This document shows, in pieces, positions 1 to 47,660 of a stretch of 64,000 bases of DNA. Source of the DNA: Oceanidesulfovibrio marinus (GTDB taxonomy: Bacteria > Desulfobacterota > Desulfovibrionia > Desulfovibrionales > Desulfovibrionaceae); the NCBI RefSeq assembly GCF_013085545.1, contig NZ_CP039543.1:1426001-1490000 (forward strand). Direction: 5' to 3'. The translations under genes and the position numbers were made by a program. The stretch's first letter is position 1. Each line of letters starts with the position of its first letter. The notes under the pieces are model-generated. The model made no database searches. It was not told the origin of the DNA and saw nothing but the letters and a program-made list of their open reading frames with translations.

Positions 1-1798
1 GCGCGCTCATGGACGGCGCGAGCTTGTCGTGCCGGTTGCGGGTGCCCATCTGATTTTCGATGAAATAGTCCGGGTTCTTGAGTTTGCCGATGTCGTGGTA
101 CAGGGCGGCGACCTTGCAGAGCAGCGCATTGGCGCCGATGGCCCTGGCGCCGGCCTCCACCATGTTCGCCACGATGAGCGAGTGGTGGTAGGTGCCGGGC
201 GCGACCACCATGAGCTCCTGCAGCAGAGGCTGCTCCAGGCTCATCTGCTCCATGAGCCGGAAGCGGGAGGTGTAGCCGAAGACGGTTTCCGCAACCGGGC
301 TGAACGACGTGGTGAGGATGAGCGAGATGAAGCCGGACATGGCTACGAAGGTAAGTTCTGTGGCAAGATCCGAGAACAATCGCGTATCCAGAAGGCGCAT
401 GCCGGCCCAGGCCAGGAACAACCCGGCCAGCAACGGCAGCACGCTCTTGAGCACGTCGGTGCGCGTCTGCGCGCGTTTTATCACCACGCTGTAGAGCACC
501 GCGCCCAGGAAGTAGTAGGCGAACATCCCCAAACCCTCGCCCAGCAGCTGGCAGCTCACGAAAGAAAAGAGCGTGCTGACCAGGATGCAGGTGGTCATGG
601 AGAAGAACAGCGCAATGACGCCGGCGGCGCCGGCCACCGGCAGCAGGAGCGGCATGGCGCTCTCGCTGAGGAAGGTGATCCTGTCCGCCAGGGGGACCTC
701 GATGACGCCGATGAGCTTGGCGCCGGCGCCCACCAGCAGCAGGATAAACGAAACGAGCAGCGCGTCGCGATTGGTGGGAAGATTGACGATGGAGCCTCGT
801 GGCGTCAGCGCCAGGAACACGGCGAACAGGATGCCTAGCAGGAAGATGCCCATGGGCCGCAGGTACTCGAAGTGCTGCGGTACCTGGCTGAACAGGGCCT
901 GGAGCTTGAGCTGCGTGGCCGGGGTCACGCGCTCGCCCTTGCGCACGATCACCTCGCCCTTCTTGATGTGGTAGTACACCGGCTCCACCGAGGAAATAAC
1001 CTCGCTCACGCGCTCCTGGCTGGCTTCCGGGTCCATGGCCAGGGTCGGCGTGATGAGCGGCCGGAACAACTCCAGGAGCGCCTTGCGCTGGCGGAGGGAG
1101 AGGTCCAGCCGGATATGGAGGAATCGCTCCAGATCACGGCCCAGGGTGTCCACGTCGTCGATCTGGGAGAGGTCGAGACGCAGGGTGTCCTGCTGCGCGG
1201 CCTTGTCCTGAACGATGATGCCGTTCTTGAACGAGTCCAGGAGCCGGTCGTCGAAAACCACGCCCTGGGCCAGACGCTCCTCCAGCCAGGGCAGCACCCG
1301 GATAAAGGCCAGGTTCTCCATCTCATTGTTGCGCAGCACCTCGATGCTCCGCAGACTGATTTCCCGGTTGAGTATCTCGGAGACCTGCCAGCGCGCCTCT
1401 TCCAGCGTGTCCGGCGTGGACTCGTGGATAACGCCGTAGATCTCGGACAGGCGGGACTCGGTACGCTGTGCGGAGTCCAGGGACAGGTTGAAGACCGGCG
1501 GCTGCGACTCGGAAATGTGCTGGATCTTCTCCAGGGTGGATTGCCGCTCCTCCACGAGCAAATCCTGCATCGCGGTCACGTCCTGGTCGGCTATCTCCCC
1601 GGCGGCAAAGATTTTCACGCCAGGATTGATGCGCACGCCCCCCATGAGCGCAAGCGCTGAGAGCACGATCAGGAAGCCGATCGTTCCTGCGCGGCGTCTG
1701 TCGAGAAATGAAACATCCTCCCTGGGCTTGAGACGCGGCGTCATGGGCTGCGTTTTGGCCTTGGAGGATTTCTTCTCAGTTTTTTTCGCGTTGCTCAT
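1..1798 (-). CDS. 7TM-HD family membrane phosphohydrolase (PgpH/YqfF type), 3' end beyond window
   Basis: The minus-strand frame opens at an ATG at 1798 and is still open at base 1, so the C-terminus is missing. I translated it by hand. It has a Lys-rich N-terminus, a first membrane segment (about residues 38-54), a long extracytoplasmic region, a cluster of hydrophobic helices, and then an HD domain with PGTYHHS and YHDIGKL metal-binding motifs. This order is typical of the 7TMR-HD family, whose characterised Gram-positive members hydrolyse c-di-AMP. Whether this organism uses c-di-AMP is not shown here. The start lies inside the end of the upstream phoH-like gene (23-base overlap), so the two are probably translationally coupled. 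A phoH/7TM-HD pair often precedes ybeY, which would lie outside the window. Confidence 0.88.
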   Translation of the reverse strand, partial: MSNAKKTEKKSSKAKTQPMTPRLKPREDVSFLDRRRAGTIGFLIVLSALALMGGVRINPGVKIFAAGEIADQDVTAMQDLLVEERQSTLEKIQHISESQPPVFNLSLDSAQRTESRLSEIYGVIHESTPDTLEEARWQVSEILNREISLRSIEVLRNNEMENLAFIRVLPWLEERLAQGVVFDDRLLDSFKNGIIVQDKAAQQDTLRLDLSQIDDVDTLGRDLERFLHIRLDLSLRQRKALLELFRPLITPTLAMDPEASQERVSEVISSVEPVYYHIKKGEVIVRKGERVTPATQLKLQALFSQVPQHFEYLRPMGIFLLGILFAVFLALTPRGSIVNLPTNRDALLVSFILLLVGAGAKLIGVIEVPLADRITFLSESAMPLLLPVAGAAGVIALFFSMTTCILVSTLFSFVSCQLLGEGLGMFAYYFLGAVLYSVVIKRAQTRTDVLKSVLPLLAGLFLAWAGMRLLDTRLFSDLATELTFVAMSGFISLILTTSFSPVAETVFGYTSRFRLMEQMSLEQPLLQELMVVAPGTYHHSLIVANMVEAGARAIGANALLCKVAALYHDIGKLKNPDYFIENQMGTRNRHDKLAPSMSA

Positions 1799-44389: not shown

Positions 44390-45370
44390 TCAGGTTGTGC
44401 GCAGCTCTTCTTCGTTGATCACCTGGAACGCCTTGTTGCCCTTCACCATTCCCGTGATGCCGTGGTACTTGAGCACGCCTTCGATCTCGGCCTCGAAAAG
44501 GTCGTCGGTGTCGGTGTCCAGCAGGATGATGTCGCCCTCCTCCAGGTTCAGGAGCTGCCGGCCGGTGATCTTGGAGCGGCCGAAGCGCACCAGCATCTCC
44601 ACCGGTGTTTCCAGCAGCCGTTCCTTGAGCCGGGAGACCCAGGCGTGGTCCACCTCCAGCCGTTCGGTCTGGAAGCTGGCGTGCAGCTTGGAGCGGATGG
44701 GCTCGATGGTGGCGTACGGCAGGCACAGCACCAGGGAGCCAATGGAGTTCTCCAGCTCCACCTCGAAGGTGATGACCACCACCACGTCCGAGGGCGGCAC
44801 GATGGCCGCGAACTGCGGGTTGATCTCGGAGCGCACCAGCTCCAGGTTCACGTCATGCACCGGTCGCCAGGACTCCTCCATGTTGTCCAGGGCGATCTTG
44901 ATGACGCGGTCCACGATGGCCTGCTCGATGCTGGTGAACTCCCGGCCCTCGATCTTGGGCTGGGAGCCGGTGCCGCCGAAGAAGTTTTCCACCAGGGCGA
45001 AGACCAGGCGCGAGTCCACCACCATGATGGCGTTGCCGCGCAACGGGTCCATCTTGAAAATGTTGATGGAGGTGGGCACGGGCAGCGAACGCATGAAATC
45101 GCCGAACTTGGTCATGTCGATGGAGATCGGGTTGAGCTCCACGCGCTTGCGCACGGCGTTGGAGAGCGCGTTGGTGCACAACCGGGCGAAGCGGTCGTTG
45201 ACGATCTCCAGAACCGGCATGCGCCCGCGGATGATGCGGTCCTGGTTGGCGAGGTCAAAGGGCACGATGCCGGAGTCGTCCTCCGAGACATCGGACTCGA
45301 CCTCGATCTCGCCGCCGGAAAGGCCGCGCAGCAGAATATCGACTTCGTCCTGTGCGAGAATCTTGCTCAT
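44390..45370 (-). CDS. fliM: flagellar motor switch protein FliM
   Basis: A 326-residue FliM of normal length. The N-terminal CheY-P-binding peptide is MSKILAQDEVDILLRGL. The middle domain shows GRMPVLEIVNDRFARL, and the GGTGSQP loop near 130 is the conserved GGxG motif that contacts FliG. The C-terminal SpoA (FliN-like) domain is ETPVEMLVRFGRSKITGRQLLNLEEGDIILLD. FliM sits in the C ring and switches rotation. Here it is apart from other flagellar genes. Two small genes of unknown function lie upstream on the same strand, one of which copies its N-terminal peptide. Confidence 0.96.
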   Translation of the reverse strand: MSKILAQDEVDILLRGLSGGEIEVESDVSEDDSGIVPFDLANQDRIIRGRMPVLEIVNDRFARLCTNALSNAVRKRVELNPISIDMTKFGDFMRSLPVPTSINIFKMDPLRGNAIMVVDSRLVFALVENFFGGTGSQPKIEGREFTSIEQAIVDRVIKIALDNMEESWRPVHDVNLELVRSEINPQFAAIVPPSDVVVVITFEVELENSIGSLVLCLPYATIEPIRSKLHASFQTERLEVDHAWVSRLKERLLETPVEMLVRFGRSKITGRQLLNLEEGDIILLDTDTDDLFEAEIEGVLKYHGITGMVKGNKAFQVINEEELRTT

Positions 45371-45466
45371 AAGTTATACCCCGCTCCGGGGTAATGGTGT
45401 TGGAGCTCCCGGAGCTGTTGCAGCATACGGTGGGCGGTCTGGACGGTCAAGAATTCCCGGCCTGGG

Positions 45467-45506
45467 AAAAAAAGACCGCGCCCCACACACAATGTGCAGG
45501 GCGCGT
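45467..45506 (-). terminator. terminator of the FliM-peptide small gene
   Basis: CGCGCCC/GGGGCGCG arms with an inner CACA/TGTG pairing, followed on the minus strand by GTCTTTTTTT. It separates this gene from fliM, which therefore needs its own promoter. Confidence 0.85.
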
Positions 45507-45559: not shown

Positions 45560-45901
45560 CTAGCCCATGAAAAACGGGACGAGCTTGTTGCAAATGTATG
45601 AGCACAGCCCGGCTATGGCCATCAGCTGGATGACGTCAAAGGGATGCACCCAGATGCGGCGCACGGTCACTCTGGTGAAGAGGCCGTGGTCCACGTGGAC
45701 GACCCGGTAGTACAGCCGGCTCTCACCCTTGCGGCGGGCAGAGAGCAGGTTGCCGGTCCAGAGCTCCTTCTCCTTGACGTTGTTGAACAACTCACTGAGA
45801 TCGTGACCCCTTGTGTCACAAAACTCGGGCTGTCCTCCACACGCGCCAGGGAGCCCATGCAGCAGGATTTCGACTTCATCCTTGGCGAGAATCGCATTCA
45901 T
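45560..45901 (-). CDS. small tail-anchored protein starting with a FliM-type CheY-binding peptide
   Basis: A 113-residue protein. Residues 1-17 (MNAILAKDEVEILLHGL) are nearly the same as the first 17 residues of FliM next door: ILA, DEV, ILL and GL are shared in register. The rest is not FliM. Residues about 33-90 (GHDLSELFNNVKEKELW, SRLYYRVVHVDHGLFTRVTVRRIWVHP) match the adjacent 98-residue protein, and residues about 90-112 form one hydrophobic segment at the very C-terminus, so it is a tail-anchored membrane protein. The FliM peptide should bind phosphorylated CheY; a membrane CheY-P sink or competitor is an inference. It has its own terminator, so it is not just an upstream part of the fliM transcript. 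Confidence 0.78.
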   Translation of the reverse strand: MNAILAKDEVEILLHGLPGACGGQPEFCDTRGHDLSELFNNVKEKELWTGNLLSARRKGESRLYYRVVHVDHGLFTRVTVRRIWVHPFDVIQLMAIAGLCSYICNKLVPFFMG

Positions 45902-46063
45902 AAAAACACCCCCGTTACAAAGTAAGGGTGGCAAAATGTTGTATGCTTATGGTGATATACACACCGAGAGAGGCGGTCAAGCCCTTCCCGGCGGTTTTCA
46001 CCTTCGCTTTACATTTGAGGATTACCCAACACATTCTATGCAGATCACATGCCAGAACCCAGG

Positions 46064-46360
46064 TCAGTCGAGGAAAAACGGAACCAGCATGTCAAAAAGG
46101 AACCAGCAGAGCCCGGCTATAATGGCAAGCTGGATGATGTCGCGCGGGTGCAGCAGGACGCGGCGCACGAACACCCTGGTGTGGAACCCGGGCTCCACCC
46201 GCACTATCCGATAATAGCGCCGGTTCTGGCCGCGGCGCCGCACCGAGATGGAGTTGCCCTTACGCAGCTCGTACAACTCCACATCTTCGAAGATGTGGCT
46301 CAGGTCCTCGCCGGTCTTGTCGTCGTAGAATATGGTAAACCCGCCGTGCGGTGGGTGCAT
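46064..46360 (-). CDS. small tail-anchored protein, paralogue of the FliM-peptide protein
   Basis: A 98-residue protein. GEDLSHIFEDVELYELRKGN, RRYYRIVRVEPGFHTRVFVRRVLLHP and the final hydrophobic segment DIIQLAIIAGLCWFLFDMLVPFF align along nearly the whole length with the 113-residue neighbour, but the FliM-like peptide is missing and an unrelated MHPPHGGFTIFYDDKT start replaces it. It is basic before the membrane segment and should be anchored by its C-terminus. ATG 46360 has GGGAGAG upstream. Same direction as the neighbour, with a 162-base gap. Function unknown. Confidence 0.75.
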   Translation of the reverse strand: MHPPHGGFTIFYDDKTGEDLSHIFEDVELYELRKGNSISVRRRGQNRRYYRIVRVEPGFHTRVFVRRVLLHPRDIIQLAIIAGLCWFLFDMLVPFFLD

Positions 46361-46571: not shown

Positions 46572-47660
46572 CTACAAAAACGCCAGGACCCAGCTCCACA
46601 CGACCACGAGCAATGCGCCCAAGGCGACCAGGCGGTCCCACAGACCGGGCAGCACCCGGCCCGTCTGGGAGAGCCAGCCGGCGATCATGCCGGGGACGAT
46701 GCCGCACACAAAGCCGAAGAAGTGCGCGCCGAGGTCGATGTTGCCCTCCCCCGCGCCCAGAAAAGCCAGCAGCGCCACGCCCATGGCCAAAGGCAGCAGC
46801 ACGCCGCGCCACGCCCGTTTCCAGAAGCTCTCATGCGGACCGGACACCAGGAGCACGCCGATGCCCGCCTCGGCCGCGCCGATGCCGGCAAGCACGCCCA
46901 CAGCGCCGAGCACGGCCGTGGAGGCGCCCAGGCTCACGTGGTCGTAGCCGGAAACCCGGCAGTTGATGAGGTTGCCGACCACGCCGGTAAAGAGGATGGA
47001 CCACCAGCCCAGGGCCGCGCCCACTCGCCGGGTGACCAGATAGAAGAAAACTCCGCCGAACAAGGCGTTGGTCAGCAGATGCCCGGCGTCGGCGTGAAGT
47101 GTCAAAGCTGTGACAGCCCGCCACCATTCGCCCATCACCTGAATGCGCATGCAGTCGGCCACGCCGGCCTCGCGCCAGGCCAGGGCAAAGCCCTGCGCGC
47201 CCTGCCCCAGCTGATCCAGCGTCAGCGGCCCGGGGCTGCTGGTGCGTGTAACAAGGGCGTGGAAGCACGCAAGCAAGGCGAGCACGAGAAAGGTCTGGCC
47301 CAAACCGGCCCTTGCCGGTGGCGCCGGCATGGGTGCACGCCCTCTATTGCCTGCGTTCTCAACCACATACTGTTCAATCTCGTCCAGGGCGCGCTCCACA
47401 TGGCGCTCCGGCACATACAAGGCTGGACCGGTGGCCTGCGCGGCCCCTTCCGGCCTTCCCAACCAGGATGTTCTGCGAGACGGGTATAATTCAGGGTGGT
47501 TAGGCACGCTGCGCGAGTCGAGCACGAGCGTCCATAATCTGACAATGCGACGGTTTGCCGACATCCCGAACCGCTCCTCCAGCTCGGGAACGATGTCCAG
47601 CCAGCCTGCGTCCGGGGGAGCCGTGCGCAGCAGACGCGCGGGGGAGTGGCGGCGATCCAT
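46572..47660 (-). CDS. rhomboid family intramembrane serine protease
   Basis: A 362-residue protein. A soluble N-terminal part (1-118) is followed by about seven membrane segments. Catalytic Ser247 lies in LGASTAVLG (GxSxA instead of the usual GxSGA), catalytic His313 in DLGAHFFGFVCG, and HADAGHLLTNALFGG supplies the conserved His194 and Asn198. Rhomboids cleave membrane proteins within the bilayer. Substrates are unknown. The hairpin CGAAGGCCG/CGGCCTTCG at 46474-46518 is a possible terminator. Next gene upstream is fxsA on the same strand. Confidence 0.88.
   Translation of the reverse strand: MDRRHSPARLLRTAPPDAGWLDIVPELEERFGMSANRRIVRLWTLVLDSRSVPNHPELYPSRRTSWLGRPEGAAQATGPALYVPERHVERALDEIEQYVVENAGNRGRAPMPAPPARAGLGQTFLVLALLACFHALVTRTSSPGPLTLDQLGQGAQGFALAWREAGVADCMRIQVMGEWWRAVTALTLHADAGHLLTNALFGGVFFYLVTRRVGAALGWWSILFTGVVGNLINCRVSGYDHVSLGASTAVLGAVGVLAGIGAAEAGIGVLLVSGPHESFWKRAWRGVLLPLAMGVALLAFLGAGEGNIDLGAHFFGFVCGIVPGMIAGWLSQTGRVLPGLWDRLVALGALLVVVWSWVLAFL

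What the first reader, a model, noticed from the sequence alone, without database searches (positions are those of the whole stretch)
45560..46360. FliM CheY-binding peptide grafted onto a tail-anchored small protein, beside fliM and a peptide-less paralogue
The 113-residue protein begins with MNAILAKDEVEILLHGL, against MSKILAQDEVDILLRGL in FliM 190 bases downstream. The shared ILA, DEV, ILL and GL are in register, and the codons are also similar. The rest is a different protein with a C-terminal membrane helix. A second gene encodes the same body without the peptide. In FliM this peptide binds phosphorylated CheY, so a membrane-held CheY-P competitor or buffer, or an unknown docking site for a CheY-like protein, is possible. 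Exon-shuffle-like capture of a regulatory peptide next to its donor gene would be unusual.
Basis: partly seen in the sequence, partly recalled or inferred. Interest (0 to 1): 0.75.

Follow-up and report, generated by a model that had tools for sequence, protein, structure and literature searches.

The report
FliM docking peptide on membrane protein
In one genus of bacteria, a duplicated gene beside the flagellar switch gene fliM carries FliM's short signal-docking peptide on a small membrane-anchored protein, so the cell may hold a chemotaxis or flagellar-placement regulator at the membrane, although nobody has tested this.

Summary
Gene A (45560-45901, minus) encodes 113 residues. Its first 19 match FliM (13/19 identical, ungapped, from the initiator Met); the rest matches gene B (51% identical, no peptide) and ends in a membrane helix. 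The genome is one contig; a pattern scan found this start only in fliM and A. The sister species keeps both genes (A' 72% identical, MSNLLAKDEVDILLRGV), on a different contig from fliM, so this is not an assembly error. Selection on A is purifying (dN/dS 0.20), and helix core 5-14 carries one change, Glu to Asp. Another genus has one peptide-less gene between the same rhomboid gene and fliM, the probable ancestral state. The simplest history is one tandem duplication from inside the ancestral gene into the start of fliM. The claimed codon similarity is no more than codon usage predicts; upstream similarity is only suggestive. Most likely function, inferred: the peptide docks a FliM ligand (phospho-CheY, or the ATPase FlhG) at the membrane. 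FlhF, FlhG and CheZ genes are present and the hydrophobic contact positions are kept, but Gln7 is Lys in both copies. Binding, expression and phenotype are untested. New variant of a known kind.

The parts
45560..45901 (-). Gene A, 113 aa: FliM-like N-terminal peptide + body + C-terminal membrane helix
   Evidence: Open frame; orthologue A' in the sister species at 72% identity; dN/dS 0.20
45845..45901 (-). FliM-like docking peptide of A, codons 1-19 (MNAILAKDEVEILLHGLPG)
   Evidence: 13/19 identical to FliM 1-19, 73.7% at DNA level; core 5-14 nearly invariant in A'
45578..45634 (-). Predicted membrane helix of A, residues 90-108, five residues from the C-terminus
   Evidence: Hydropathy; helix 87-111 in the model (mean pLDDT 63)
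46064..46360 (-). Gene B, 98 aa: paralogue of the body of A without the peptide
   Evidence: 51% identical to A 23-112; orthologue B' in the sister species, 70% identical
44390..45370 (-). fliM, 326 aa, presumed donor of the peptide
   Evidence: PF02154 E = 2.3e-71, PF01052, TIGR01397 above cut-off
45314..45370 (-). FliM N-terminal docking peptide, codons 1-19 (MSKILAQDEVDILLRGLSG)
   Evidence: conserved across FliMs of the family and order
45422..45450 (-). Promoter-like site of fliM, TTGACC-17-TATGCT
   Evidence: Consensus scan; not evidence of function
45477..45505 (-). Terminator-like hairpin between A and fliM, 13 pairs then a T run
   Evidence: Consensus scan
45974..45992 (-). Block upstream of A (GCCGGGAAGGGCTTGACCG) resembling the block at 45444-45461 upstream of fliM, at nearly the same distance from the start codon (72 and 73 bases)
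   Evidence: only suggestive, P about 0.05 against other upstream pairs
46572..47660 (-). Rhomboid-family gene, conserved upstream neighbour that fixes the synteny with G213/G214
   Evidence: PF01694 in the window and in L013; gene order

Best explanation
A is a gene chimera: the start of fliM (docking peptide, perhaps with its promoter region) joined to the body of a small tail-anchored protein of the same locus, most simply by one tandem duplication running from inside the ancestral body gene into about codon 20 of fliM. That leaves intact B, chimera A and intact fliM in this order. The product should sit in the inner membrane by its C-terminal helix with the FliM helix free in the cytosol. 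There it most likely docks a normal ligand of the FliM N-terminus (phospho-CheY, or FlhG), competing with the C-ring for it or holding it at the membrane. Shown: the sequences, their conservation, the peptide-less single-copy arrangement in another genus, purifying selection. Inferred: breakpoints, topology, ligand and effect.
For: Peptide match far above background and restricted to fliM and A in the genome. Conserved in the sister species even though A' there lies on another contig than fliM. One nonsynonymous change (Glu/Asp) in core 5-14 against 3 synonymous, P = 0.048. Single peptide-less gene between rhomboid and fliM in G213/G214. A-B identity 48% exceeds B-X 31% and A-X 21-23%. Residue 12 is Ile in A, A' and the FliM of this genus and G213/G214, Ala in most other genera. 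CheY contact positions L6, I11, D12, L14 of E. coli FliM (PMC3774744 Table 3) are kept as Leu5, Val10, Glu/Asp11, Leu13. flhF, flhG and cheZ are in the genome. FliM's N-terminus is reported to bind CheY-P and FlhG.
Against: No binding, expression or phenotype data. Gln8 (E. coli numbering), a CheY backbone contact and Gln in 29 of 29 FliMs, is Lys in A and A'. Codon identity with fliM is not beyond codon usage, and upstream similarity is only P about 0.05 and absent in the sister species, so the duplication breakpoints are not proved. Constraint on the whole 19-residue peptide is marginal (P = 0.07). Only two genomes carry the chimera.
Confidence: 0.45

Rival explanations
1. The chimera is real but the peptide is a by-product: the duplication supplied a promoter, ribosome site and start codon, the body does the work, and the peptide is kept for expression or stability and not for docking.
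For: Selection on the body is far clearer (P = 3e-9) than on the peptide (P = 0.07). The conserved Gln has become Lys. Upstream blocks of A and fliM look alike.
Against: The helix core 5-14 has pN 0.045, the lowest of the stretches tested, while the linker after it drifts (pN 0.28): a pure leader would not be expected to keep the amphipathic helix and lose the linker.
Confidence: 0.3
2. The ligand is specifically FlhG: A tethers FlhG to the membrane and so affects flagellar number and flagellar gene expression; CheY is not involved.
For: FlhG binds the FliM N-terminus in polar flagellates and shares that site with FlrA (PMC12826062, PMC11236974). flhF and flhG are adjacent in this genome. The Gln to Lys change removes a CheY contact.
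Against: The exact FlhG contacts of FliM were not available here, so the fit of A's peptide to FlhG could not be judged.
Confidence: 0.2
3. The resemblance to FliM arose by convergence: a short amphipathic helix evolved at the start of A independently of fliM.
For: Shared codons and upstream DNA are not beyond chance. CheZ of the same genome ends in a similar helix (QQDVDDLLGQLGLE).
Against: 13-14 of 19 residues in exact register from the initiator, adjacency to fliM, and the lineage-specific Ile12; the score lies far above all other N-termini of the window.
Confidence: 0.04
4. Misassembly or frameshift joined two genes.
For: None beyond the odd architecture.
Against: One-contig genome and the same chimera, 72% identical, in an independently assembled second species and in another setting.
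Confidence: 0.01

Closest known systems
FliM N-terminal segment (FliM_N, 'EIDAL' motif)
   Same: Peptide in the same place (protein N-terminus), same register, hydrophobic and acidic contact positions kept
   Different: A lacks the FliM middle and SPOA domains, has a membrane helix, and has Lys for the conserved Gln
FliY / FliN with EIDAL motif
   Same: The same docking motif on a protein other than FliM is known in FliY and sporadically in FliN (PMC6946799)
   Different: FliY and FliN are C-ring proteins with SPOA (and CheC-like) domains; A has neither and is membrane-anchored
CheZ C-terminal CheY-binding helix
   Same: Similar short helix on a non-motor protein; the CheZ of this genome ends QQDVDDLLGQLGLE. 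That this helix binds CheY is from my own knowledge
   Different: C-terminal, soluble phosphatase, no relation to the body of A
FipA
   Same: Small membrane protein acting on FlhF/FlhG-dependent flagellar placement (PMC12826062, PMC11620751): an analogy for what A might do
   Different: FipA interacts with FlhF; A carries a FliM peptide and matches no Pfam family
CheO of Campylobacter
   Same: A lineage-specific extra protein acting between chemotaxis and switch proteins (PMC9665402)
   Different: Found only in Campylobacterota by its authors; no sequence comparison was made here

Membership tests
FliM | N-terminal CheY-docking peptide | tested here: met
   13/19 identical in register; contact positions kept except Gln to Lys. 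Sequence only, binding not tested
FliM | Middle (CheC-like) domain, PF02154 | tested here: not met
   No Pfam family for A at E up to 10; whole-genome search with FliM finds only fliM in this genome
FliM | C-terminal SPOA domain, PF01052 | tested here: not met
FliY / FliN | SPOA domain (with CheC-like domain in FliY) | tested here: not met
   No Pfam or NCBIfam match of that kind for A
CheY-P-docking peptides | Hydrophobic and acidic residues that contact the alpha4-beta5-alpha5 face of CheY | tested here: met
   Leu5, Val10, Glu/Asp11, Leu13, Leu14 in A and A' against the contacts in PMC3774744 Table 3; one polar contact (Gln8) not kept
CheY-P-docking peptides | Binding to activated CheY | not testable with these tools
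   No binding assay and no complex prediction available
Tail-anchored membrane proteins | Single membrane helix within about 30 residues of the C-terminus and no N-terminal signal | tested here: met
   Best hydropathy window 90-108 of 113 in A, similar in A', B, B' and X; model helix 87-111. Insertion and topology not tested
FipA | FipA conserved domain | tested here: inconclusive
   No Pfam match for A at E up to 10; no direct comparison with a FipA sequence was made

The most novel reading that the evidence does not exclude
A genus-specific regulator made by a single tandem duplication that moved the motor's signal-docking helix onto the membrane: A holds phospho-CheY or FlhG at the inner membrane and so shifts the switch threshold or flagellar number, with B as the ligand-blind paralogue.
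Probability: 0.35. Interest if true: 0.65.

Novelty: new variant of a known kind. Interest (0 to 1): 0.5.

Why it matters
Here the donor (fliM), a peptide-less acceptor and the chimera can all be read from genomes, which makes this a clear case of how a regulatory docking peptide moves to a new protein. If A binds CheY-P or FlhG, it would be a chemotaxis or flagellar-number component outside the C-ring that no current annotation reveals, and a single deletion would test it.

Tried and rejected
Misassembly or frameshift: rejected by the one-contig genome and the sister species. Codon-level proof of descent from fliM: not significant (P = 0.15). Upstream DNA homology: at first above a 35-region background (score 40, maximum 35), but only P about 0.05 against all pairs of a larger set and not supported in the sister species; not used as proof. 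Pfam, NCBIfam and PDB sequence searches for the body: chance-level hits only. Structure: models of low to medium confidence (mean pLDDT 63 and 73); Foldseek had no match under E = 0.5 and VIA-align none above Z 5.1, so no fold is claimed. Genome-contig scans: the single-protein query found no relative and the alignment query one 22-residue match in a Spirochaetaceae genome, taken as chance. Second FliM-peptide hits in ten other genomes of the family are weak; those inspected lie inside unrelated frames. A PDB search with the 21-residue peptide found nothing. Distant body-like proteins in genus g24 are too weak to build on.

Full report
Observation. On the minus strand the order is rhomboid (46572-47660) > B (46064-46360) > A (45560-45901) > fliM (44390-45370). 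A begins MNAILAKDEVEILLHGLPG and FliM begins MSKILAQDEVDILLRGLSG: 13 of 19 identical, no gap, both from the initiator. FliM's start scored against 361 other ORF N-termini of the window gives mean -12, SD 10, maximum 25; A scores 62 by the same matrix (hand sum). A scan of the genome (one contig, 4.76 Mb) for the coding pattern of DE[VI][DE]xLL found nine places, and only fliM and A are protein starts of this kind. From about residue 22 on, A matches B (51%).

Conservation. The only other held genome of the genus, G215, has A' (72% identical over all 113 residues, MSNLLAKDEVDILLRGVPG...) and B' side by side. There fliM lies well inside another contig, behind genes that look like glycosyltransferases and membrane proteins, and A' has a reverse transcriptase gene and an IS66 transposase downstream. 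So A' kept its peptide although its neighbourhood was broken up. Between A and A' dN/dS is 0.20, P = 9e-10 for fewer nonsynonymous changes. The helix core, residues 5-14, has one nonsynonymous change (Glu/Asp) in 22 sites against 3 synonymous in 8 (P = 0.048), while residues 15-33 vary most. For the whole 19-residue peptide constraint is only marginal (P = 0.07).

Origin. In two species of another genus (G213, G214) the same gene block from rhomboid to fliM holds one X gene without the peptide. G176 has one peptide-less copy away from fliM. A profile found no other clear relatives in 348 genomes of the order. A-B identity (48%) is higher than B-X (31%) or A-X (21-23%), and A and A' form a well-supported clade, so the duplication most likely came after the split from that genus and before the two species separated. 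Synonymous divergence of the peptide is larger between A and FliM (1.1-1.2) than between A and A' (0.6), which agrees, although these values rest on about 14 sites. The most economical history is one tandem duplication with breakpoints near codon 6 of X and codon 20 of fliM, since that alone yields intact B, chimera A and intact fliM in this order. This is inference: codon identity is not beyond codon usage, and the similar upstream blocks (GCCGGGAA..CTTGACCG, 72 and 73 bases before the ATG) reach only P about 0.05. Residue 12 is Ile in A, A' and in the FliM of this genus and of G213/G214, but Ala in most other genera, which points to a local donor.

Mechanism. FliM's N-terminal peptide binds phospho-CheY; contacts in the E. 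coli complex include L6, Q8, I11, D12 and L14 (PMC3774744). In A and A' the hydrophobic and acidic positions are kept (Leu5, Val10, Glu/Asp11, Leu13, Leu14), but the Gln is Lys in both, against Gln in 29 of 29 FliMs. The same FliM segment is reported to bind FlhG in polar flagellates, at a site shared with the transcription factor FlrA (PMC12826062, PMC11236974). The genome has adjacent flhF and flhG genes and a CheZ whose C-terminus, QQDVDDLLGQLGLE, is a similar helix. A's hydrophobic helix (90-108) is followed by only five residues, so a cytosolic N-terminus with the peptide exposed is the natural topology. The likely effect is to hold CheY-P or FlhG at the membrane, or to compete with FliM for it. 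None of this was tested. There is a terminator-like hairpin between A and fliM, and fliM has a promoter-like site of its own, so the two genes may be expressed independently.

Limits. The body has no known domain or fold. Only two genomes carry the chimera. A search of the open literature for tail-anchored, chemotaxis, CheY and FliM together returned no paper, which is weak evidence of novelty because most subscription papers are not held.

Noticed in passing
L010 6445-9387 and L078 (sister species G215): The fliM locus has been broken up in the sister species: A' and B' lie near a reverse transcriptase gene and an IS66 transposase, and fliM lies on another contig behind unrelated genes, while the genes downstream of fliM stay conserved.
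   Followed up: partly
L077 3281-4009 (own genome): CheZ of the same genome ends in QQDVDDLLGQLGLE, a helix resembling the FliM and A peptides.
   Followed up: partly
L045 (G004): One genome of the family has two fliM copies about 200 bases apart, both starting MSKILSQDEVDTLLRGLTGGEV, so local duplication at fliM is seen elsewhere too.
   Followed up: no
L022 and L023 (G149, G147): Very distant tail-anchored proteins resembling the body (E 1e-4 and 0.007) follow a gene that looks like a universal-stress protein; they are not next to fliM and lack the peptide.
   Followed up: no
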